Source of the DNA: Pelagibacteraceae bacterium AG-325-C10
Lineage (GTDB): Bacteria > Pseudomonadota > Alphaproteobacteria > Pelagibacterales > Pelagibacteraceae
Reading direction: 5' to 3'
Assembly: GCA_003282975.1 (NCBI GenBank)
Contig: QBYD01000011.1
Location: 1 to 38,984 of the forward strand
Length of the DNA stretch: 38,984 bases
In this document: positions 1,694 through 10,261 of the stretch, piece by piece
Position numbering within the stretch: the first letter of the stretch is position 1
Layout of the letters: every line of letters begins with the position of its first letter
Made by a program: the position numbers and the translations under genes
The notes under the pieces: generated by a model
The model's input: the letters and a program-made list of their open reading frames with translations, nothing else
What the model was told of the DNA's origin: nothing
Database searches by the model: none

Positions 1694-2059
1694 TTATTTA
1701 AGTTCTACTTTAGCGCCTGCAGCTTCTAACTTAGCTTTGATCTCTTCAGCTTCTTTTTTATTAACACCGGATTTAACTTCTTTTGGTGCTCCCTCTACAA
1801 GATCTTTAGCTTCTTTTAAACCTAATGAAGTTGCTGCTCTAACTTCTTTGATAACGTTAATTTTTTTCTCGCCAGCTGACATAAGCATAATTGTAAAATC
1901 ATCTTTATCTTCTGCTGGGGCTGCACCACCTGCTGCAGCTGGAGCTGCTGCTGCCATTGGAGTAACACCCCATTTTTCTTCTAATTGTTTTGAAAGTTCA
2001 GCTGCCTCTGCAACAGTTAAACTTGAAAGGTCTTCAATAATTTTATTTAGGTCAGGCAT
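1694..2059 (-). CDS. rplL: Ribosomal protein L7/L12
   Basis: This is the 50S stalk protein that recruits and stimulates the translational GTPases. The 121 residues equal the usual length. An N-terminal dimerisation helix (about 1-33, beginning [19 protein letters not shown]) is followed by an Ala/Gly/Pro-rich hinge (about 34-52) and the C-terminal factor-binding domain with the conserved [14 protein letters not shown] motif and the ending [13 protein letters not shown]. It starts 6 bases after the rplJ stop, so the two stalk genes are cotranscribed and probably translationally coupled. Family assignment is unambiguous. Confidence 0.99.
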
Positions 2060-2065
2060 ATTTTA

Positions 2066-2587
2066 TTACTCTTTAGGTTGTGTTTCAGAATTTTCTGCGG
2101 TCAAACTACTCATTTTTTCTGAGTATGCAAGCAAAATACTCACTAATTTAGATGCTGGAGCATTTAAAATACCAACAATATTAGCTCTTGCTTCATCTAA
2201 TGTTGGTAAACTTGCTACATTTTGGACACCGGCCTGATCTAAGACCTCATTATCCATAATTCCACCAATTAATTTTAAATTATCGTTATCTTTTGCAAAT
2301 TTAGACAAAATTCTTGCAGACATGATTGCATCTTCACCAAAAGCTACTGCCGTTGGTCCTGTAAACAAGTCTGATAATTCTTTACACTTAGTTTTCTCTA
2401 ACGCCAATTTAGTAATTCTATTTTTTGTAATTTTAAAAATTATACCATGTTCTCTCATTTGAGCTCTTAATTCATCTAGTTGAACCATTGTTAATCCCTG
2501 GTAATGAGTAACCATTACAGCTTTACTGTTCTCAAATTGTGTTGACATTTCAGCAATATAATTTTTTTTCTGGTCCTTGGTCATCAT
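2066..2587 (-). CDS. rplJ: Ribosomal protein L10
   Basis: L10 forms the base of the ribosomal stalk: it binds 23S rRNA together with L11 and carries L7/L12 dimers on its C-terminal helix. The protein is 173 residues, close to the usual 165-175. It contains the N-terminal motifs YQGLTMVQLDELRAQMRE and KNRITKLAL and a C-terminal helix rich in Leu and Ser that would receive L7/L12. Two ATG codons stand in a row at the start (2582-2587) and either could serve. A GGAAGG stretch shortly upstream could act as a ribosome-binding site. It lies 2 bases after rplA. Confidence 0.98.
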   Translation of the reverse strand: MMTKDQKKNYIAEMSTQFENSKAVMVTHYQGLTMVQLDELRAQMREHGIIFKITKNRITKLALEKTKCKELSDLFTGPTAVAFGEDAIMSARILSKFAKDNDNLKLIGGIMDNEVLDQAGVQNVASLPTLDEARANIVGILNAPASKLVSILLAYSEKMSSLTAENSETQPKE

Positions 2588-2589
2588 AA

Positions 2590-3279
2590 CTATATCGCCT
2601 TCCCTAATTTAACTTTGTAAGAAACGCCCATAGTTGAAGTTACAAAAGTATTTTTAATTAAATCACCTTTAAGAGTATTATTTGATTTTTCTTTTTCTAA
2701 AGCATCTAACACTGCATGAAAATTTTTTAATAACTGGTCATCATGAAAAGATTTTTTTCCAATACTAACACCTATGTTACCATCTTTATCATTTCTAATC
2801 TCAACTTGACCTGATTTTGCATTTGTTACAGCTTCTTTAATATTTTCAGATACAGAACCAAGTTTTGGATTAGGCATCAACCCTTTTGGACCTAAAACTT
2901 TTCCTAATTTTGATAGTTTAATCATCATACCAGGTGTACAAATTAATTTTTCAAAATTTAATTCGCCACCTTTAATTTTTTCAACAAATTCATCGCTTCC
3001 GACAATATCTGCTCCAGCATCTTTTGCTTCTTGAGCTTTATTATCTTCACAAACAACAGCAACTTTAACATCTTTACCAGTTCCACCAGGTAAGTTTACA
3101 ACTGTTCTAATGTTAACTTCACTCTTCTTTTGTTTGTTATTAATTTGAAAGCTTAAATCTAAAGATTCATCAAATTTAGTTGTGCAATTTTTTTTTACTT
3201 GAGGTAATAATTTTTCAATTATATCAGCATTTAAATCTTTTGTTTTTTCGGGTAATTTTTTATATCTCTTCGAAGCCAT
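2590..3279 (-). CDS. rplA: Ribosomal protein L1
   Basis: L1 forms the mobile L1 stalk of the 50S subunit that guides deacylated tRNA out of the E site. In many bacteria it also represses its own rplKA mRNA; that regulation is not visible here. At 229 residues it has the usual length. The family signature is present (KLICTPGMMIKLSKLGKVLG, then GLMPNPKLG), as is the C-terminal NTFVTSTMGVSYKVKL. The start overlaps the rplK stop by one base (TAATG arrangement), which indicates translational coupling. Confidence 0.99.
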   Translation of the reverse strand: MASKRYKKLPEKTKDLNADIIEKLLPQVKKNCTTKFDESLDLSFQINNKQKKSEVNIRTVVNLPGGTGKDVKVAVVCEDNKAQEAKDAGADIVGSDEFVEKIKGGELNFEKLICTPGMMIKLSKLGKVLGPKGLMPNPKLGSVSENIKEAVTNAKSGQVEIRNDKDGNIGVSIGKKSFHDDQLLKNFHAVLDALEKEKSNNTLKGDLIKNTFVTSTMGVSYKVKLGKAI

Positions 3280-3704
3280 TATTCTTTTACCTCTATACCC
3301 ATTGATCTTGCAGAACCTGCAATAATTTTTATAGCTTCATCTAAATCATGAGCATTTAAGTCAGCCATTTTTTGATTTGCAATATCTTCTAATTGTTTTT
3401 TTGAAATTGTTGCAACAATATTTCTTCCTGGTTCTTTTGACCCACCTTTAAGTTTGACTGCTTCTTTTATAAAAAAAGATGCTGGTGGTGATTTAATTTT
3501 AAAGTCAAATTTTTTGTCTTTATATACAGTTATTTCAACCGGCACAGGTTTACCTGCCATTGATTTTGTTTTGTCATTAAACGCTTTGCAAAATTCCATA
3601 ATGTTTACACCACGTTGACCTAATGCTGGACCAACTGGTGGCGCTGGATTCGCTTGACCGCCTTTAATTTGTAATTTTATAAATCCACTAATTTCTTTTG
3701 CCAT
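3279..3704 (-). CDS. rplK: Ribosomal protein L11
   Basis: L11 binds the GTPase-associated region of 23S rRNA and is needed for RelA-type stringent activation. The 141-residue protein has the normal two-domain layout. The N-terminal Pro-rich segment [17 protein letters not shown] (about 18-34) is the region linked to thiostrepton binding and factor contact, and the C-terminal rRNA-binding domain includes [11 protein letters not shown]. It shares one base with both neighbours (nusG stop/rplK start and rplK stop/rplA start). Confidence 0.99.
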
Positions 3705-4234
3705 TAACTTACTTTCTCAACTTGGTTATATTCTAAATCTACTGGTGTTGGACGTCCAAATATAGAAACTGAGACCTTAAGCCTAGACTTTTCTTCATCA
3801 ATATCTTCCACCATTCCACTGAATGATGCAAAAGGACCATCAACAACCTGAACTTTTTCACCAACGCTGTACTCTATACCAGATTTTGGCTGAGCCACAC
3901 CATCTTTTATTTGACCTAATATCTTTTCTATTTCTTTATCTGAAACTGGAACAGGTATTCCTTTAGAACCAAGAAAACCACTTACTCTCTTAATATTTTT
4001 AATCATGTGATAAATATTATTATCCATCTCACTTTTAATTAGTACGTATCCTGGAAAATATTTCTTTTTTCTTTGAACTCTCTTGCCTCTTTTAACTTCA
4101 GTTACGTCGTGAGTTGGAACAATAATTTCCTCAAATTTTTCACCTATTTTAGCTTTATCAGCCTCTTCTTTAATAAGGCCAGCCACTTTGTTTTCAAAGC
4201 TTGAGTGTGATTGAACAATGTACCAATTTTTCAT
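3704..4234 (-). CDS. nusG: Transcription elongation/antitermination factor NusG
   Basis: NusG binds the RNA polymerase clamp and links transcription to Rho or to the leading ribosome. The 176-residue protein (E. coli has 181) shows the NGN domain opening with [17 protein letters not shown], the [16 protein letters not shown] segment that forms the polymerase-facing strand and loop, and a C-terminal KOW domain (about 123-176) with [17 protein letters not shown]. It sits between secE and rplK, its standard position, and overlaps secE by one base. Confidence 0.98.
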
Positions 4235-4425
4235 TATATGCTCACTTTAAGAAGTAATTCTAAAAAAAACTTTAAAACCTGATCTAAAAGAAGAAAAAAC
4301 AATGACATAACAACAGCCATTACAAATACCATTAAAGCTCCTTGTAGTGTCTCTTTCCATGTGGGCCATGAAACTTTAAAAGCCTCTTGTTTTACTTCTT
4401 GTATGAATTTGATCGGGTTTCTCAT
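4234..4425 (-). CDS. secE: Protein translocase subunit SecE (short single-helix form)
   Basis: SecE is the clamp subunit of the SecYEG channel in the inner membrane. At 63 residues this is the minimal form: an amphipathic N-terminal helix with the conserved KVSWPTWKETLQG motif (about 18-30) and one membrane segment (about 31-55). E. coli SecE has two additional membrane helices and 127 residues; the short form is common outside enterobacteria. The gene lies between tRNA-Trp and nusG, a conserved order. Confidence 0.95.
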   Translation of the reverse strand: MRNPIKFIQEVKQEAFKVSWPTWKETLQGALMVFVMAVVMSLFFLLLDQVLKFFLELLLKVSI

Positions 4426-4442
4426 AATTTTTAAGCTCTAAT

Positions 4443-4518
4443 TGGCAGGAGCGGAGGGACTCGAACCCTCAGCCTCCGGTTTTGGAGACCGGCGCTCTAC
4501 CAATTGAGCTACACTCCT
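4443..4518 (-). tRNA. tRNA-Trp (anticodon CCA)
   Basis: A 76-base cloverleaf on the minus strand. The acceptor stem pairs AGGAGUG with CGCUCCU (one G-U pair), the discriminator is G and the terminal CCA is encoded. The anticodon stem CCGGU/ACCGG holds the loop CUCCAAA, giving anticodon CCA. The T-arm contains GGUUCGAGUCC. It sits between tuf and secE with only 10-17 bases on each side, so it must be cut from the operon transcript. Confidence 0.97.
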
Positions 4519-4528
4519 ATTTATAGAG

Positions 4529-5719
4529 TTACTCTATAATTTTAGTTACTACTCCTGCTCCAACAGTTCTTCCACCTTCTCTAATAGCAAAGTTAAGTTG
4601 TTCTGCCATAGCAATCGGTGTAATTAGTTTAACAGTAAATTTAGCATCATCACCTGGCATAACCATTTCTGTTCCTGCTGGTAATTCTACTTCTCCTGTT
4701 ACGTCTGTTGTTCTAAAGTAAAACTGTGGTCTGTATTTAGTAAAAAAAGGAGTGTGTCTTCCACCCTCATCTTTTTTAAGTACATAAGCCTGAGCTTCAA
4801 ATTTAGTATGTGGAGTAATTGATCCAGATTTACAAAGAACTTGACCTCTTTCAATGTCAGTTCTTTCAATCCCTCTCAATAAAATTCCAACGTTATCACC
4901 AGCCTCACCTGAGTCTAGAAGTTTTCTAAACATTTCAACTCCAGTACAAACTGATTTTTTAGTTTCTTTAATACCAACGATTTCAACTTCTTCACCAGTT
5001 TTAATTACACCTGATTCAATTCTACCAGTTGCAACTGTTCCTCTTCCTGAGATTGAAAATACATCCTCAACAGGCATCAAGAATGGTTTATCAACATCTC
5101 TTGCTGGTTGTGGAATATGTTCGTCAACAGCTTTCATTAATTCTAAAATTGAATTTTTTCCAATTTCATCATCTCTTTTTTCAACAGCCGCTAAAGCTGA
5201 ACCTTTAACGATAGGAGTTGTTTCTCCAGGATATTTATAAGATGTTAAAAGTTCTCTGATTTCTTCTTCAACAAGTTCGATCATATCTTTATCATCCACT
5301 TGATCAACTTTATTTAAGTAAACAACAATTGCTGGAATTCCAACTTGTCTTCCTAAAAGAATGTGTTCTCTAGTTTGAGGCATAGGACCATCAGCAGCAT
5401 TAACTACTAAGATAGCACCATCCATTTGTGCAGCACCAGTGATCATGTTTTTTACATAATCGGCGTGACCTGGACAATCAACGTGAGCGTAATGTCTTTT
5501 TTCTGTTTCGTATTCAACGTGTGCAGTTGAAATTGTAATTCCTCTTTCTTTTTCTTCCGGAGCTTTATCGATTTGATCGTAAGCTACAGCAGTTCCACCA
5601 CCAGCTTCTGCTAATACATTTGTAATAGCTGCAGTAAGTGTTGTTTTACCATGGTCGACATGACCAATAGTCCCAATGTTACAGTGGGGTTTGTTTCTAA
5701 CAAATTTTTCTTTTGACAT
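4529..5719 (-). CDS. tuf: Elongation factor Tu
   Basis: EF-Tu delivers aminoacyl-tRNA to the ribosome using GTP. The protein has 396 residues, the normal length. Domain 1 carries all G motifs: GHVDHGKT (P-loop, about 19-26), the switch I segment [16 protein letters not shown] (about 81-88) and NKVD. Domains 2 and 3 follow, ending [11 protein letters not shown]. Only this copy is visible; whether a second tuf exists elsewhere cannot be told. It lies between tRNA-Gly and tRNA-Trp, an arrangement similar to tRNA-tuf operons of other bacteria. Confidence 0.99.
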
Positions 5720-5765
5720 TACTTTTTTACCTCAGTTTTTGTTTTCATTAATAATTTCTTTTTCT

Positions 5766-5839
5766 TGGAGCGGGTAAAGGGAATCGAACCCTTACATCCA
5801 GCTTGGAAGGCTAGCGTTCTACCATTGAACTACACCCGC
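5766..5839 (-). tRNA. tRNA-Gly (anticodon UCC)
   Basis: A 74-base cloverleaf on the minus strand. The acceptor strands are GCGGGUG and UACCCGC, the discriminator is U and CCA is encoded. The anticodon stem CUAGC/GCUGG holds loop CUUCCAA, giving UCC. It lies 46 bases upstream of tuf and 45 bases downstream of tRNA-Tyr, so it is probably part of the tuf operon transcript. Confidence 0.96.
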
Positions 5840-5884
5840 ACAACCCCAAGAGTAACACTCCACGTTATTAAAATTTCTATTGAA

Positions 5885-5970
5885 TGGTGGAGGGGGAAAG
5901 ATTCGAACTTTCGAAGACCGAAGTCAACGGGTTTACAGCCCGCCCCATTTGACCGCTCTGGAACCCCTCC
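5885..5970 (-). tRNA. tRNA-Tyr (anticodon GUA)
   Basis: An 86-base class II tRNA on the minus strand with the long variable arm expected for Tyr. The acceptor is GGAGGGG paired with CCCCUCC, the discriminator is A and CCA is encoded. The anticodon loop between GGGCU and AACCC gives GUA. It appears to be the first gene of the tRNA-Tyr/tRNA-Gly/tuf transcript; a plausible promoter lies about 50 bases upstream. Confidence 0.96.
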
Positions 5971-6016
5971 TTTGGGGAAGTGTCCCCTGTTCAATAAAGC
6001 TTCAAACAACATGCGT

Positions 6017-6044
6017 TTTATATATTTTATTTATGCAAATGCAA
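6017..6044 (-). promoter_or_regulatory. Putative promoter of the tRNA-Tyr/tRNA-Gly/tuf operon
   Basis: On the minus strand, TTGCAT (6039-6044) and TATAAA (6017-6022) are separated by 16 bases. A GC-rich stretch (GGGGACACTTCCCC) follows just before the tRNA-Tyr 5' end. Placement is by consensus only, in an AT-rich background where chance matches are common. Confidence 0.45.
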
Positions 6045-6098
6045 CACGTGATTTAATAAGAAAATATTCAAAAAAACGTGTAAAACTCTATTAAATTT

Positions 6099-6842
6099 AT
6101 GGATAAATCATCTTTTTTCATTGCTGGTCAACATGCTGTTATAGAAGCTTTAAGAAATCCTAATAGAAAGGTTTTAAGAGTATTTTTAACTGAAGATGCG
6201 AAGAAAAATATACATAAAAAGAATCCTAGAAAAAATGTCTTAGAGGATGTTAAAGTTTATTATAAATCCAAAAAGGAATTAGACAAATACACTTCAAAAG
6301 AACAATTAATGCATAATGGATACATTGCAGAAGTTGAGCATCTTGAACAATCTGACCTTAAAGAGTTTATAAAAGAAAAAAAAGATTGTACTTTTGTTTG
6401 CTTGGATGAAGTAACTGATCCAAGAAATATTGGCTCATTAATAAGAAGTGCCGCATCTTTTAAAATTGATGGATTAATTGTTAAGGAAAGACATTTTCCA
6501 AGTGATAGCAAACTTATGTATAAATCTGCAAGTGGGTGTATGGAGCATCTAAACATTTTTAAAGTATCAAATATAAATTCTACACTTAAAAATTTAAGAG
6601 AAAAAAACTTTTGGGTTTATGGTTTTGATGCAAGAGGTGAAAAAAATTTTACTGATGTTAAATGGGAAGGGAAAAATGTTCTTCTGTTTGGATCTGAAGG
6701 TTTTGGTATGAAAGAGCACACAGGTAAATATGCTGATTTTTTTGTTAAAATAGATATTAATAAAGATATTGAAAGTCTAAATATCTCAAATAGTGCAGCA
6801 ATTGTGTTTCACCATTTAAGTTATTTAAAAAAAAAGGGTTGA
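6099..6842 (+). CDS. rlmB: 23S rRNA (guanosine-2'-O-)-methyltransferase, RlmB/TrmH type
   Basis: This SpoU/TrmH-family SPOUT enzyme transfers a methyl group from S-adenosylmethionine to a ribose 2'-OH; RlmB acts on G2251 of 23S rRNA in E. coli. The 247 residues match the family. An N-terminal RNA-binding domain (about 1-85, including AGQHAVIEAL) precedes the knotted catalytic domain with motif 1 EVTDPRNIGSLIRSA, motif 2 LLFGSEGFGM and motif 3 SLNISNSAAIVF. It reads away from the tRNA-Tyr/tuf operon and ends 33 bases before tRNA-Thr. The exact target (23S rRNA or tRNA Gm18) cannot be proven from sequence alone. Confidence 0.9.
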   Translation: MDKSSFFIAGQHAVIEALRNPNRKVLRVFLTEDAKKNIHKKNPRKNVLEDVKVYYKSKKELDKYTSKEQLMHNGYIAEVEHLEQSDLKEFIKEKKDCTFVCLDEVTDPRNIGSLIRSAASFKIDGLIVKERHFPSDSKLMYKSASGCMEHLNIFKVSNINSTLKNLREKNFWVYGFDARGEKNFTDVKWEGKNVLLFGSEGFGMKEHTGKYADFFVKIDINKDIESLNISNSAAIVFHHLSYLKKKG

Positions 6843-6875
6843 TTATTTGAAAAATAATTAATAGTTATTGCGCAT

Positions 6876-6951
6876 GCCCTTGTAGCTCAGTTGGTAGAGC
6901 AATTGATTTGTAATCAATAGGTCCGCGGTTCGAATCCGTGCGGGGGCACCA
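6876..6951 (+). tRNA. tRNA-Thr (anticodon UGU), attachment site of the adjacent island
   Basis: A complete 76-base cloverleaf. The acceptor is GCCCUUG with CGGGGGC, the discriminator is A and CCA is encoded. The anticodon stem AUUGA/UCAAU holds loop UUUGUAA, giving UGU. Bases 29-76 of this tRNA plus three following bases (6904-6954) recur exactly at 8621-8671 and in degenerate form at 9419-9482. The gene has therefore served as an integration target and remains intact at the left edge of the island. Confidence 0.97.
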
Positions 6952-7016
6952 TCACTCAATAAAATCAACGTTAAATTTTTTCATAATTCTAGTTTTTTTA
7001 TTAAATTTATTATCGA

Positions 7017-7049
7017 GTGTGACGCTGGTGTGACGTGAGTGTGATACAA
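7017..7049. repeat. TGTGAC direct-repeat cluster, left end of island (three 11-bp units)
   Basis: Three tandem 11-bp units: GTGTGACGCTG (7017-7027), GTGTGACGTGA (7028-7038) and GTGTGATACAA (7039-7049). The first 17 bases of TGTGACGCTRGTGTGAC match the cluster at 8544-8560 with one difference. It starts 65 bases after the tRNA-Thr end. An 11-bp spacing puts all units on one face of the helix, as for a cooperative protein-binding site. Confidence 0.6.
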
Positions 7050-7061
7050 TCAAGTAGTCGT

Positions 7062-8198
7062 TTAATTATTTTTTTTGTATTGTTGAAAATGATAATTTAA
7101 GAAATCTTTATCTATTTTATGCTTATTATTAATAGTTATTTTTTTTCCCACAAAATTTTCTAGTCCTTTTATATCAAATGTTTCTGGGTCAATATAATAA
7201 CCGTAGTCATCAAATTGTTCGTGATGGTTTGGACATAAGCAAATCATATTCTCAATAACATCAGGTCCGTTATGAGGTTTTCCTAAACCTTTAATGTGAG
7301 CACCAATAGCTATACCTCCATATGGAGTTTTTAAATAGATGTCACAAACCTGACATTTATAATCATACAATCTTTTAATTTCCTCACTAAGTTTAACATT
7401 TCTTTTTAATCTATTAACAGTAGCTGAAGCTCTTTCTGTTCTTTTATAATCTGATTTTAAAGTTGGTTTTAATTCGGTTTCTAATTTTTCAATTTCTTTT
7501 TCACTACTCAAATGAAAACGGCAAATATAATAGCCACTCTGACCTTTAATTCTTTCAAACTTATTAACATAATAAAGTCCATCGTATCTATATCCTTTAT
7601 CAGGACCGTTAGGAATTTGATGACCTCGTGTCACACGAACAGGCAAATCATATTTAGAACTTAAAACTAAAGCTTTATTTCCTCTAACATATTCTTGGTC
7701 TGCAACTTGTTTTCCACCAGGTTTATCCTGGCCTCCTTGACCGGTATAAAGAATATAATTTAAATCATCTATATCGTCTTCATAACCACCAGATAAAACA
7801 ATTGAGCAAGCTCCTTCGCTTTCCCTGCCCCAAATACCAGACATCGTTGGACCGTGAACTCTAGTTTTTGAAAGCTCATCTCTATCTTTAAAAATTTGAC
7901 CAACTTTTATGTTTTCTAGTTCACCAAAAAATAATTTTCCATCATCGAAATTTCGAAGACCCCAAACTCCTTTTCCTTTTCCTTCAGCCATATAAAAAAG
8001 ATCATCACCTTTCCTATCCTTTTTAAATGCATCTGAGTCTGAAGAATTAGTTTCTAATTCTCTTTGAACTGTTCTATCCCAAGTAGGGTTTAAATTTCCT
8101 TCTCTTATGCGTTCTACTTCTTTATAAATTTTTGATAAATGTGCTACGCCACCTAAATTTTCTAAAGCCTTAATTATATCTTCTTTCCAAGTTGCCAT
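7062..8198 (-). CDS. SRA (YDG)-HNH modification-dependent restriction endonuclease
   Basis: This is a likely type IV restriction enzyme that cuts DNA carrying modified cytosine. The 378 residues have three parts. Residues 1-85 look like a winged-helix module (WKEDIIKALENLGGVAHLSKI). Residues about 90-232 form an SRA/YDG domain, with the motifs GACSIVLSGGYEDD (129-142), YTGQGG (151-156) and GYRYDGLYYV (202-211); SRA domains flip out and read 5-methyl- or 5-hydroxymethylcytosine. Residues about 278-330 form an HNH nuclease with zinc ligands C282/C285 and C322/H325, and H301, N317 and H326. TagI- and ScoMcrA-type enzymes combine the same domains. It lies inside the tRNA-Thr island, 36 bases downstream of a small exported protein. 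No partner methylase is present, as expected for type IV enzymes. Target modification and cutting are inferred. Confidence 0.88.
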   Translation of the reverse strand: MATWKEDIIKALENLGGVAHLSKIYKEVERIREGNLNPTWDRTVQRELETNSSDSDAFKKDRKGDDLFYMAEGKGKGVWGLRNFDDGKLFFGELENIKVGQIFKDRDELSKTRVHGPTMSGIWGRESEGACSIVLSGGYEDDIDDLNYILYTGQGGQDKPGGKQVADQEYVRGNKALVLSSKYDLPVRVTRGHQIPNGPDKGYRYDGLYYVNKFERIKGQSGYYICRFHLSSEKEIEKLETELKPTLKSDYKRTERASATVNRLKRNVKLSEEIKRLYDYKCQVCDIYLKTPYGGIAIGAHIKGLGKPHNGPDVIENMICLCPNHHEQFDDYGYYIDPETFDIKGLENFVGKKITINNKHKIDKDFLNYHFQQYKKNN

Positions 8199-8234
8199 TT
8201 AACTCGGAACCACAATCCCTAAAAGTTTCTTCAT

Positions 8235-8528
8235 TTAATTATAAGGAGATGCATTCATATCATAGCACCCTTCAATTGAATAATTTGAATGTCCTGCATC
8301 ATAGGCCTGTTCTCTTAAATAAGAGAGGCAATAATTTTCTGCTCTACTTAGACTACCAGGATCTTTTCTTTCATTGTAGGTTATACCTCCGATGCAATCA
8401 ATTTTTTCTCCTGTATCCTGACTATAAACGCATCCTTCTACATCTGGATCACAAAAGAAAATACAAAATGCATAAGACGGTGTTTGAAAAAATAGAATAA
8501 TAAACAAAGAAAGAATAATTTTTCTCAT
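8235..8528 (-). CDS. Small exported cysteine-rich protein, unknown function
   Basis: I do not recognise this 97-residue protein. From the ATG at 8526-8528 it begins MRKIILSLFIILFFQTPSYA, a textbook signal peptide with probable cleavage after SYA. The mature part of about 77 residues is acidic and holds seven cysteines (including FCIFFC near its start), which suggests disulfide bonds in the periplasm. A longer reading from GTG at 8541-8543 would put five residues ahead of the signal peptide and is less likely. It shares a cassette with the SRA-HNH gene. A two-unit GTCACA repeat lies 15-36 bases upstream of its start, exactly as in the MORN gene of the next cassette. Confidence 0.65.
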   Translation of the reverse strand: MRKIILSLFIILFFQTPSYAFCIFFCDPDVEGCVYSQDTGEKIDCIGGITYNERKDPGSLSRAENYCLSYLREQAYDAGHSNYSIEGCYDMNASPYN

Positions 8529-8542
8529 AATAAATAGTATCA

Positions 8543-8564
8543 CTGTGACGCTAGTGTGACTAGA
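8543..8564. repeat. TGTGAC direct-repeat cluster, right end of cassette A (two 11-bp units)
   Basis: Two units, CTGTGACGCTA (8543-8553) and GTGTGACTAGA (8554-8564). They lie 56 bases before the tRNA-Thr copy at 8621 and 15 bases upstream of the ATG of the small exported protein. The equivalent cluster at 9344-9365 matches at 18 of 24 positions over the CACTGTG...AGA stretch. Confidence 0.6.
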
Positions 8565-8620: not shown

Positions 8621-8671
8621 TGATTTGTAATCAATAGGTCCGCGGTTCGAATCCGTGCGGGGGCACCATCA
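8621..8671 (+). repeat. Exact 51-bp copy of the tRNA-Thr 3' end (att site)
   Basis: Identical to 6904-6954: from base 29 of tRNA-Thr (anticodon stem) through the encoded CCA and three following bases. Weaker similarity continues for about 15 bases (CAATTAAATCAA against CAATAAAATCAA after the tRNA). The 5' half of the tRNA is missing, so this is not a functional tRNA. It marks the boundary between cassettes A and B. Confidence 0.92.
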
Positions 8672-8730: not shown

Positions 8731-9330
8731 CTACAATTCACTCTTAATTTTTCCATTCTCCCATTCACCTGAATACTTTTTTCCATCAGGGTAATTTATA
8801 ATACCTTTTCCATGTTTACGACTATTCTTAAATTCTCCTTCATATTTTTCACCATTAGGTGATGTAAATATACCTTTTCCATTTAATTGATCATCAGTCC
8901 ATAAACCAATAAATTTTTCTCCTGTTTTTGAAATATAAGTACCTTCTCCATGTTGGCGAGAATTTTTAAAATTCCCAATATATTTTGCACCATTCGGATA
9001 TGAAAATACACCTTCTCCATTTTGTTTGCCATCTTTCCAATTACCAACATATTTTGCTCCATCAGGATAAGTAAAAGTTCCTTTACCATCATGAGAACCA
9101 TTTTTCCATTCACCAACATATTTTCTGCCGTCTTGATATGTTAAACTCCCTTGTCCATTTGGATTACCTTCTTTCCACTCTCCAATAAACTTAGTTCCAT
9201 CAGGTATATTTACCTCGCCTTTACAGTTAGTCCATTTTCTTACATCAGCATCTGTACACAATGGTAATGATAAAGATATATCTGCCCAAAAAAAAATATA
9301 ACAAATGATATATAAAAGTATTTTCATCAT
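8731..9330 (-). CDS. Exported MORN-repeat protein
   Basis: A 199-residue protein with an N-terminal signal peptide (MMKILLYIICYIFFWADIS, probable cleavage near residue 22), Cys25 and Cys36 in a short linker, then seven MORN repeats of 23 residues starting at about 47, 70, 93, 116, 139, 162 and 185 (the last is partial). Each repeat follows the pattern K-Y/F-x-G-x-W/F-K-x-x-x-x-x-G-x-G. MORN arrays form elongated beta sheets used for protein or membrane-surface binding; no catalytic domain is visible. The signal peptide places it in the periplasm or outside. It is the only gene in cassette B. Its role is unknown; possibilities include an envelope-surface scaffold or an effector-like protein. 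Confidence 0.82.
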   Translation of the reverse strand: MMKILLYIICYIFFWADISLSLPLCTDADVRKWTNCKGEVNIPDGTKFIGEWKEGNPNGQGSLTYQDGRKYVGEWKNGSHDGKGTFTYPDGAKYVGNWKDGKQNGEGVFSYPNGAKYIGNFKNSRQHGEGTYISKTGEKFIGLWTDDQLNGKGIFTSPNGEKYEGEFKNSRKHGKGIINYPDGKKYSGEWENGKIKSEL

Positions 9331-9398: not shown

Positions 9399-9418
9399 AT
9401 GTTTATTTAAACTTTAGT

Positions 9419-9482
9419 AATTGATTTTTTATCAATAGGTCACGGTTCGAAACCGAGCGAGGTCACCATCACTCAATAAAAT
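9419..9482 (+). repeat. Degenerate copy of the tRNA-Thr 3' end plus flank (outer att site)
   Basis: Matches tRNA-Thr from the anticodon stem (AATTGATT) to the encoded CCA (9466-9468) with several substitutions and one deleted base. It then matches the bases after the tRNA (ATCACTCAATAAAAT) perfectly. The T-loop GGTTCGA is kept. It is the right boundary of the island; nadK ends 22 bases later. Its decay suggests it is the oldest junction. Confidence 0.85.
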
Positions 9483-9490
9483 TAAATAAG

Positions 9491-10261
9491 TTAGCTCGTT
9501 TCTCCTCTTAATTGTTCAATTTTAATTTTTTTTTGTAAGCTTTTGCTTTTATCATACAGAAGATTGAATTTTATTTTATTATTAGTTTGAACAGAAATAG
9601 ATTTAGCATTTCTAACTTCTAAATTATCAGCAACAGCGCTAATTGGTCTTTTGGTTGGATTTAAATTGGTAATTATAATTTTAAGTTTATCATTAACTAT
9701 TTTACCCCTCCATCTTCTGGGTCTAAATGGACTAATAGGAGCAATAGATAATTTTTTTGAATTTAAACTCAAGATAGGTCCATGAACTGAAAGATTGTAG
9801 GCAGTACTACCTGCAGGAGTTGATACTAGCACTCCATCTGCAACTAAATTTTTAATAATTTGTTTTGAACCATGTTTGATTGATAAAGATGCAGCTTGTC
9901 TGCTTTGTCTTAAAACTGATACCTCATTTATCGCTAATGATTTTTTTGTTTGATTATTCTTATTTTTTACGATCATTTCTAGTGGTGAAATTGAAATCAT
10001 ATTAGCATTAGTCAAATTCTTAATAATATTTTTTGAAGAAAACTTATTCATTAGAAATCCATAATTTCCTGAATTAATTCCATAAAATCTTTTTTTTAAA
10101 TTCTTGTTTTTTTTTAAAGTTTCAAGCATAAAGCCATCACCACCAATAACGATTACAAGATTGTCTTGTTTAAATTGGTAATTTTTAATTTTTTTTAAAA
10201 GTAAATTTTTAATATTGGATGATTTTTTATTTTTATCAGAAATAATTTGAGGATTACTCAT
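9491..10261 (-). CDS. nadK: NAD kinase
   Basis: NAD kinase phosphorylates NAD to NADP in the cytoplasm and is the only route to NADP. The 256 residues show the GGDG motif (40-43) of the diacylglycerol-kinase-like fold, INEVSVLRQ, DGVLVSTPAGSTAYN and GPIL, all typical of the family. It is slightly shorter than the usual 290 residues: the opening Rossmann strand before GGDG is reduced, as in several alphaproteobacteria. It starts 4 bases after the tRNA-Leu end, so the two are probably cotranscribed, and the chromosomal backbone resumes here after the island. Confidence 0.93.
   Translation of the reverse strand: MSNPQIISDKNKKSSNIKNLLLKKIKNYQFKQDNLVIVIGGDGFMLETLKKNKNLKKRFYGINSGNYGFLMNKFSSKNIIKNLTNANMISISPLEMIVKNKNNQTKKSLAINEVSVLRQSRQAASLSIKHGSKQIIKNLVADGVLVSTPAGSTAYNLSVHGPILSLNSKKLSIAPISPFRPRRWRGKIVNDKLKIIITNLNPTKRPISAVADNLEVRNAKSISVQTNNKIKFNLLYDKSKSLQKKIKIEQLRGETS

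What the first reader, a model, noticed from the sequence alone, without database searches (positions are those of the whole stretch)
7062..8198. SRA-HNH type IV restriction enzyme in a streamlined marine genome
Restriction systems are rare in SAR11-type genomes. This protein joins a winged-helix-like N-terminus, an SRA domain and an HNH nuclease with a full set of likely zinc and catalytic residues. Being in a tRNA-linked cassette suggests an exchangeable defence gene against phages with modified cytosine.
Basis: partly seen in the sequence, partly recalled or inferred. Interest (0 to 1): 0.62.

Follow-up and report, generated by a model that had tools for sequence, protein, structure and literature searches.

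The report
Modified-DNA cutter in SAR11 tRNA cassette
An ocean SAR11 bacterium carries a gene for an enzyme that very probably cuts foreign DNA bearing chemically modified cytosines, and the gene sits in a small insertion beside a tRNA gene, one of many interchangeable insertions found at that spot in related cells.

Summary
The gene at 7062-8198(-) is real: a winged-helix/SRA/HNH protein whose SRA-HNH part is homologous to the solved enzyme TagI (E 1.5e-49; 104 of 284 aligned residues identical). Pocket, zinc and catalytic residues are kept; two TagI thumb residues are not. Cutting of 5mC/5hmC DNA is inferred, not shown. The cassette idea holds and sharpens: a 51-bp exact copy of the tRNA-Thr 3' end bounds a 1,717-bp insertion with this gene and a small ORF, no integrase, and paired ~11-bp-period end repeats resembling integrase arm sites. 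The rlmB-tRNAThr-nadK site is empty in three sampled relatives and filled or stacked in others; 73 of 250 genomes hold two or more copies of the tRNA end. The ~83-residue winged helix is a module fused in other SAR11 cells to different nucleases, 7 of 14 such genes lying between tRNA or tmRNA repeats. Tyrosine integrases at the same tRNA-Thr sequence, on a viral contig and in a SAR11 cell, suggest mobilisation in trans; none with this cassette's arm sequence was found. New variant of a known kind; target DNA and winged-helix role stay open.

The parts
7062..8198 (-). wH-SRA-HNH type IV restriction enzyme gene, 378 aa
7950..8198 (-). residues 1-83: winged-helix module shared with other SAR11 nucleases
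7503..7928 (-). residues 91-232: SRA domain; pocket residues I122, Y139, D142, Y151, T152
7200..7355 (-). residues 282-333: HNH nuclease; Zn C282 C285 C322 H325, catalytic H301 N317 H326 D330
8235..8543 (-). small ORF, signal-peptide-like start by eye, 36 bp upstream of the nuclease gene on the same strand; no Pfam family
6876..6951 (+). intact tRNA-Thr(TGT), the integration target
6904..6954 (+). att-like direct repeat, copy 1 (tRNA-Thr 3' part), 51 bp
8621..8671 (+). att-like direct repeat, copy 2, 51 of 51 identical; cassette period 1717 bp
7018..7045 (+). left-end tandem repeats (TGTGACG-GTGTGAC type, 11-bp step), arm-site-like
8544..8560 (+). right-end repeats of the same type, arm-site-like
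9416..9485 (+). third, degenerate tRNA-Thr copy (86%) next to nadK: end of a second, probably older cassette
8731..9330 (-). MORN-repeat protein gene, cargo of the second cassette
6099..6842 (+). SpoU-family (rlmB-type) rRNA methyltransferase gene, left flank of the site
9491..10261 (-). NAD kinase gene, right flank of the site

Best explanation
The protein is a TagI-like modification-dependent (type IV) restriction endonuclease. Its SRA domain flips out and holds a 5-methyl- or 5-hydroxymethylcytosine, its HNH domains dimerise and break the DNA nearby, and its N-terminal winged helix adds a DNA contact whose specificity is unknown. It is cargo of an integrase-less cassette that entered the 3' end of tRNA-Thr by site-specific recombination and can be replaced by other cassettes at the same site. 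It restricts incoming DNA carrying modified cytosine: DNA from C5-methylating neighbours, or cytosine-modified phages. Shown: gene, domains, residues by alignment, repeats, empty and occupied sites, end motifs. Inferred: cutting activity, its target, dimerisation (from TagI), and mobilisation by an integrase supplied in trans.
For: SRA and HNH above Pfam cut-offs; TagI E 1.5e-49; 104 of 284 aligned residues identical, with TagI's pocket (Y55, D58, Y67, I38, T68), zinc (three Cys, H for D) and H229, N245, H254, D258, D241 kept (TagI roles from sections read). No C5 methyltransferase (PF00145) in the own genome, about 80% complete, nor in 10 genomes holding related nucleases. 51-bp exact tRNA repeat. 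Empty site rlmB-tRNAThr-nadK, with 4-9 bp between tRNA and nadK match, in L088, L089, L091. Left and right end motifs agree within an interval: 261 shared 7-mers in 54 intervals against 78.7 +/- 13.8, maximum 144, in 5000 permutations; 252 in 52 intervals against 76.3 +/- 13.3, maximum 149, without L107 and L108.
Against: No activity data. TagI thumb residues His33 and Gln35 are Pro117 and Met119 here. The lack of a C5 methyltransferase is weak evidence: the base rate is 49 of 247, so 0 of 4 SRA-HNH carriers is unremarkable, and the own genome is incomplete. PADLOC gives only a weak match (mREase_IV, E 1.3e-4). No integrase with this cassette's arms was found: of 96 viral stretches with the arm pattern, the 13 hits in stretches under 42% GC (12 loci) lie in loci without the tRNA T-loop string tested. 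L090 has a gene between tRNA-Thr and nadK with no second repeat, so not every insertion there is a bounded cassette. The SRA/HNH part of the structural model is unusable.
Confidence: 0.74

Rival explanations
1. The winged helix is the main modification reader (for example of N6-methyladenine, as in DpnI and HhiV4I) and the SRA domain is auxiliary.
For: Prokaryotic wH fusions with HNH and other nucleases read G6mATC (PMC11037411, abstract, passages and one section). The same wH module is fused to HNH without an SRA hit in Marinospirillum L028 and in Clostridia L029, L031, L032. Foldseek lists DpnI among wH matches (4kyw, TMq 0.56, E 1.2).
Against: The SRA pocket is intact, unlike a vestigial domain. 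The structural match to DpnI is no better than to many unrelated wH proteins. The host has an N6/N4 methyltransferase of its own and a SAR11 genome is methylated at GANTC (PMC9516812, passages), which would limit some adenine-methyl readers, though not one strict for GATC. No credible sequence match to any PDB wH. The paper says only about 10% of wH fusions have the 6mA/GATC motif; that motif was not compared here.
Confidence: 0.15
2. It is a ScoMcrA-type enzyme: the N-terminal domain is a sulfur-binding (SBD) winged helix and the target includes phosphorothioate DNA.
For: Same domain order wHTH-SRA-HNH as ScoMcrA (PMC10853773 passages; PMC7461809 section read). NCBIfam PT-DNA_restrict matches the HNH region.
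Against: That match covers residues 240-337 only and scores 44.2 bits against a cut-off of 180. The PDB entry 'Uncharacterized protein McrA' (5zmm; taken from recall to be ScoMcrA) aligns only at residues 300-327, E 0.025. The N-terminal module is only ~83 aa.
Confidence: 0.07
3. The cassette is no longer mobile; such cassettes spread by homologous recombination between conserved flanks and tRNA repeats, without any integrase.
For: With four query integrases, the array ORFs gave one clear integrase (L101, itself a query) and one weak hit (L095 1114-1563, E 3.6e-4). Degenerate end repeats, as at 9416-9485, show decay. SAR11 exchanges DNA often (PMC7542561, passage). A close copy of the SRA-HNH part in L018 carries different end repeats.
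Against: Paired, interval-specific end repeats with ~11-bp period are not expected from homologous exchange alone. Integrases at the same tRNA-Thr sequence exist (L040; L215).
Confidence: 0.3
4. The enzyme is not mainly anti-phage; it excludes DNA, including methyltransferase-bearing mobile elements, from C5-methylating neighbours.
For: C5 methyltransferases exceed the cut-off in 49 of 247 order genomes. In the pelagimyophage paper the words cytosine, methyltransferase and methylase do not occur (PMC7029224, find).
Against: The same paper reports a 2OGFeDO superfamily protein, said to catalyse nucleic acid modifications, in freshwater SAR11 phages (passage). TagI's modification dependence agrees with phage restriction assays (PMC6212794, abstract). 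Phages carry the methylation of their last host, so the two roles overlap.
Confidence: 0.35

Closest known systems
TagI (SRA-HNH family, 6ghs)
   Same: SRA then HNH, same pocket and catalytic residues, 104 of 284 aligned residues identical
   Different: TagI's match starts at its residue 6, with no domain before the SRA; here a winged helix precedes it; thumb residues H33/Q35 replaced by P/M; zinc ligand D253 is H, a variant reported in the family
ScoMcrA (SBD-SRA-HNH)
   Same: A winged-helix-type domain before SRA and HNH
   Different: N-terminal module is much smaller and without detectable sequence similarity; only HNH-region matches
HhiV4I and wH-HNH enzymes (6mA-dependent)
   Same: wH plus HNH combination; module swapping between nucleases
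   Different: PUA-wH-HNH order there; here wH-SRA-HNH with an SRA pocket like TagI's. The wH profile has no credible match (best 3.0 bits) in three haloarchaeal HNH proteins fetched for their HNH similarity
Additive flexible genomic islands marked by tRNA repeats (Actinomarinales, Methylophilaceae)
   Same: Small cassettes at tRNA genes with partial tRNA direct repeats (PMC7771536 passages; PMC10872708 passages)
   Different: Here in SAR11 at tRNA-Thr, with paired arm-like end repeats and type IV nucleases among the cargo
cis-mobilizable elements / tandem ssrA islands of Dehalococcoides
   Same: Elements that keep att sites but lack integration genes, stacked in tandem (PMC5704250 passages; PMC3146451 passages: 15 ssrA islands without integration modules)
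   Different: Small here (median interval 1,582 bp), tyrosine- rather than serine-recombinase context, tRNA-Thr target
Tycheposons (Prochlorococcus)
   Same: Cargo elements at tRNA genes with a tyrosine recombinase, as described in passages of PMC10872708
   Different: Given there as 4-200 kb with recombinase; the window's cassette is 1.7 kb without one. The original tycheposon paper was not held

Membership tests
SRA-HNH type IV restriction enzymes (TagI) | SRA domain followed by HNH nuclease in one chain | tested here: met
SRA-HNH type IV restriction enzymes (TagI) | Flipped-base pocket: two aromatic walls and a carboxylate | tested here: met
   by alignment only: Y139, D142, Y151 align with TagI Y55, D58, Y67
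SRA-HNH type IV restriction enzymes (TagI) | HNH motif, metal Asp and structural zinc ligands | tested here: met
   by alignment only: H301, N317, H326, D330; C282, C285, C322, H325
SRA-HNH type IV restriction enzymes (TagI) | TagI thumb residues H33 and Q35 (a TagI feature; not stated as a family requirement in the section read) | tested here: not met
   P117 and M119; UHRF1 also has a hydrophobic residue (V) aligned with M119
SRA-HNH type IV restriction enzymes (TagI) | Cleavage dependent on 5mC or 5hmC | not testable with these tools
   needs purified protein
SBD-SRA-HNH (ScoMcrA, phosphorothioate) | Sulfur-binding domain at the N-terminus | tested here: inconclusive
   No sequence match over the N-terminus; fold search lists winged helices in general
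wH 6mA-reader endonucleases (DpnI, HhiV4I) | Winged helix with the 6mA/GATC-recognition motif | tested here: inconclusive
   wH fold supported; the motif was not compared residue by residue; DpnI is a weak fold match
cis-mobilizable element (CIME) | Flanking att sites retained, integration genes absent | tested here: met
   51-bp repeats; Pfam on the three cassette proteins of the window shows no integrase
cis-mobilizable element (CIME) | Excision or transfer with a helper element | not testable with these tools
   needs culture or read data
Tycheposon | Encoded tyrosine recombinase, 4-200 kb | tested here: not met
   1,717 bp, no recombinase in the cassette; definition from passages

The most novel reading that the evidence does not exclude
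SAR11 genomes hold a population of minimal, integrase-less gene cassettes that hitchhike on the integrases of temperate phages or satellites using the same tRNA-Thr site: each cassette copies the tRNA core and a matching pair of arm-type sites, and the cassettes spread modular type IV nucleases in which one winged-helix 'reader' is fused to interchangeable sensor and nuclease domains.
Probability: 0.4. Interest if true: 0.75.

Novelty: new variant of a known kind. Interest (0 to 1): 0.52.

Why it matters
SAR11 is described as having almost no restriction systems: PMC9516812 (passages) says none had been reported apart from a few common defence systems on some genomes, and PMC7029224 (passage) counts one genome in more than 100. 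Here a compact type IV enzyme is cargo of a tRNA-Thr cassette site that is empty in some relatives and stacked in others. That gives a concrete place to look for defence genes in a streamlined lineage, and a testable idea of how very small cassettes could move although the sampled ones rarely carry an integrase of their own.

Tried and rejected
Searches that found nothing: no relative of the full protein among 85 candidate stretches of viral contigs, none in the phage records by tblastn, no DNA match in E. coli genomes. In plasmids 14 records matched and none covered 80% of the query; the best (Janthinobacterium, 39.7%) matches from residue 87 onward and has a different N-terminus. In 289 class genomes 2 matched at E 1e-10: the own genome, and one with the wH part only and a stop inside.

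Rejected or weakened: (a) the winged helix as a named sequence family: no Pfam hit up to E 0.5 and no credible PDB sequence match (best E 0.084 to Cas12a, taken as chance). HARE-HTH was considered from passages; the fold search neither supports nor excludes it. (b) A viral integrase with the window's arm sequence: 96 viral stretches hold the pattern; the 13 hits in stretches under 42% GC (12 loci) lie in loci without the T-loop string tested, and ARAGORN found no tRNA-Thr in the 13 of 96 loci that I gave it (tRNA-Gln and tRNA-Cys in L164). (c) L040's arms as a general match to cassettes: within the control range, 8-mers at either end in 39 of 54 intervals against control mean 30.0, maximum 37, of 50, and at both ends in 12 of 54 against mean 6.1, maximum 11, of 50; the clear match is one interval, L072, with 13 shared 8-mers at its left end. 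(d) Full-length structure prediction: mean pLDDT 44.3, only the wH part usable. (e) Alignment A4 misplaced L003; it was redone with L003 cut to its SRA-HNH part.

Limits of counts: the 54 intervals come from 40 of 44 loci analysed (window, 39 fetched regions, L018, L021, L024, L025); one interval (L108) spans nadK and is not a cassette. The 39 regions (leaving out L102) were chosen mostly because they had two or more repeats, plus a few single-copy sites, so they are no random sample. The 73 of 250 counts copies anywhere in a genome at up to two mismatches; in G374 and G540 copies lie on different contigs. ORFs in arrays were picked by a simple greedy rule, not a gene finder. Of 142 ORFs of 100 aa or more, 111 proteins were passed to the family searches; most pilin-like and some repeated ORFs were dropped, and the opposite-strand ORF 8192-8500 was replaced by 8235-8543. 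The PADLOC tally (28 families, 25 shown, each matched by 1-2 of 111 proteins at E 1e-5) mixes candidate models and was not read as a count of defence systems.

Full report
Observation. The ORF lies at 7062-8198 on the minus strand, 378 aa with an ATG start. Pfam places SAD_SRA at residues 91-232 (E 1.7e-43) and HNH_2 at 282-333 (E 8.1e-9), both over the curated cut-offs; residues 1-83 have no Pfam hit. Among solved structures TagI (6ghs) matches residues 90-373 at E 1.5e-49, ahead of the SRA domains of UHRF1 and SUVH proteins. From the alignment printed there, 104 of 284 aligned residues are identical and the functional residues described for TagI map as follows: pocket Y55/D58/Y67/I38/T68 to Y139/D142/Y151/I122/T152, all identical; HNH H229/N245/H254 and metal D258 to H301/N317/H326/D330, identical; zinc C210/C213/C250 to C282/C285/C322, identical, with D253 replaced by H325; dimer-interface N259 is D331; the thumb residues H33 and Q35 are P117 and M119. 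The residue roles come from three sections of PMC6212794 that I read, which also report CxxH as a family variant of the zinc site.

The N-terminal winged helix. An alignment of 17 sequences gave a model with pLDDT 86.5 and pTM 0.77. The best VIA-align matches are winged helices: linker histone H1 (5nl0, Z 10.2, rmsd 1.9 over 70 residues) and forkhead domains (Z 8-9); Foldseek finds nothing at E 0.001 or better and lists DpnI weakly (TMq 0.56, E 1.2). So the fold is supported, the role is not. The full-length model was good only for the winged helix.

The winged helix is a shared module. A profile of it found 6 of 397 genomes of the order, own included, and 21 loci in named genomes. Its partners differ by Pfam: SRA-HNH in the window and L021 (= L002) and, by sequence, L018; MrcB_N with HNH in L023 and L024 (HNH below the cut-off in L024) and by sequence L025; MrcB_N with NOV_C in L026 (= L008); an unnamed middle region with NOV_C in L019, L022, L027, and by sequence L020; an unnamed middle region with HNH_2 in L034 (= L009) and L036, and by sequence L035; and HNH alone in L028 (Marinospirillum) and the Clostridia L029, L031, L032. 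Conversely the SRA-HNH part occurs with a different N-terminus in L003. Between the window and L018, the wH coding part is 186 of 240 bases identical, the SRA part 409 of 456 and the rest 399 of 429, so the wH part is the more diverged.

The cassette. ARAGORN finds one intact tRNA-Thr(TGT) at 6876-6951. Its 3' part recurs exactly over 51 bp, copies at 6904-6954 and 8621-8671, 1,717 bp apart, and again in degenerate form (86%) at 9416-9485 beside nadK. The first interval holds the nuclease gene and a small ORF 36 bp upstream of it; the second holds a MORN-repeat gene. None of these three proteins is an integrase by Pfam.

The site in relatives. The tRNA-Thr end pattern was present in 177 of 250 genomes of the genus, and 73 of 250 hold two to five copies. 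In L088, L089 and L091 the order is rlmB, tRNA-Thr, then a nadK match after 4-9 bp: an empty site; L108 looks the same on that side but has a further repeat beyond nadK. In L090 a 464-aa ORF lies between tRNA-Thr and nadK with no second repeat, an exception. In the other 40 of 44 loci, L108 among them, 54 intervals of 352-7,696 bp lie between successive repeats. Of 142 ORFs of 100 aa or more in these arrays, 132 run opposite to the tRNA. wH nuclease genes bounded by repeats of the tRNA-Thr end are seen in the window, L018, L021, L024 and L025 (far repeat 88% in L025), and by 30-bp repeats of tmRNA in L023 (30 of 30) and L036 (96.7%): 7 of the 14 SAR11 wH loci (window, L018-L027, L034-L036; the truncated L037 left out). 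L019, L020 and L022 lie beside tRNA-Ser without such bracketing (L020 has one tRNA-Ser repeat, between tRNA and gene); in L026, L027, L034 and L035 no tRNA was found in the stretch held.

End motifs. Most intervals carry, at both ends, short repeats with an ~11-bp step and an interval-specific sequence. In the window the pattern TGTGACGNNNGTGTGAC occurs at 7018 and 8544 exactly and at 7029 with one mismatch, against 0.03 matches expected in shuffles at up to two mismatches. Left and right ends of the same interval share 261 7-mers (47 of 54 intervals with at least one) against 78.7 +/- 13.8, maximum 144, in 5000 permutations, and 38 when the right end is reverse-complemented; leaving out L107 and L108 the figures are 252 against 76.3 +/- 13.3, maximum 149. 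The permutation does not remove all relatedness between intervals. This looks like the arm-type sites of tyrosine recombinases; that label is my inference.

Possible helpers. Viral contig L040 (8.9 kb) has an exact 47-bp tRNA-Thr end without a tRNA gene, about 100 bp from a 328-aa tyrosine integrase. A relative of that integrase, 73% identical over 287 residues at a contig end, lies in SAR11 genome G563 next to a 55-bp exact tRNA-Thr end that is followed directly by nadK (79% identical over 256 residues) and tRNA-Leu: the right border of the same site. Its integrase-side sequence shares 8-mers with an end of 37 of 54 intervals (control from interval interiors: mean 12.0, maximum 18, of 50) and with both ends of 8 (control mean 0.76, maximum 3). 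For L040 the same test stays within the control range; one interval (L072) shares 13 8-mers at one end. Among the array ORFs, four query integrases find L101 (itself a query) and one weak hit in L095 (E 3.6e-4). So mobilisation in trans is a hypothesis with partial support.

Target. The own genome shows no C5 methyltransferase, nor do 10 genomes with wH nucleases or the L003 enzyme, as an enzyme against 5mC would need; but the base rate in the order is only 49 of 247 over the cut-off and the own genome is incomplete, so this is consistent rather than telling. Those 49 genomes also mean that 5mC DNA may be common around SAR11, a simpler target than cytosine-substituted phages. On the phage side, PMC7029224 mentions in one passage a 2OGFeDO superfamily protein, said to catalyse nucleic acid modifications, among unique genes of freshwater SAR11 phages. 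PMC6212794 discusses the same choice of targets for TagI (discussion read).

Known and new. As an enzyme it is a member of the SRA-HNH kind with a compact winged helix in front, the order also known from ScoMcrA. tRNA-marked additive islands are described in other streamlined bacteria (passages), and integrase-less tandem elements are known as CIMEs and in Dehalococcoides ssrA islands (passages). I found no description of the SAR11 tRNA-Thr array or of its paired end repeats in the listings and in passages of PMC7318151 and PMC7542561; the library lacks most subscription papers, so this is no proof of absence in print.

Noticed in passing
window 8731-9330 and 9416-9485: A second, older-looking cassette with a MORN-repeat protein lies between the SRA-HNH cassette and nadK, ending in a degenerate tRNA-Thr copy.
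   Followed up: partly
L072, L076, L095, L111 (tRNA-Thr arrays): Runs of pilin-like genes with an almost constant start (TLIELLVVVAIIGILAAVGVVAYNGYT) and variable remainders, and many otherwise different small proteins in the arrays sharing a leader like MKKLLGIVVLGLLLSGNAYA (by eye).
   Followed up: no
G013:C1:487195-489740 (L010): Two adjacent C5-methyltransferase genes followed by an HNH_2 protein gene, possibly a restriction-modification system in a SAR11 genome.
   Followed up: no
order-level sample: C5 methyltransferases over the Pfam cut-off in 49 of 247 genomes, more than the literature passages on SAR11 restriction-modification suggest.
   Followed up: no
L004, L005: Other SAR11 SRA proteins (455-456 aa) with a different N-terminus and a C-terminus without Pfam hit; genome G210 of L005 also has a short C5-methyltransferase match in a 150-aa frame.
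   Followed up: no
L101 (oriented 1921-8032): A 7.7-kb interval at the same tRNA-Thr site with its own integrase (Arm-DNA-bind_3 plus Phage_integrase) and a 768-aa DUF5906 protein, possibly a phage satellite.
   Followed up: partly
L103 (5341-8457): A tRNA-Thr cassette gene with Mrr_cat_2, ResIII and helicase domains; a nearby small ORF resembles one in viral contig L040 by eye.
   Followed up: no
PMC7029224, section 8: Freshwater SAR11 phages are reported to encode a 2OGFeDO superfamily protein that may modify DNA bases (passage); worth checking as a source of modified phage DNA.
   Followed up: no
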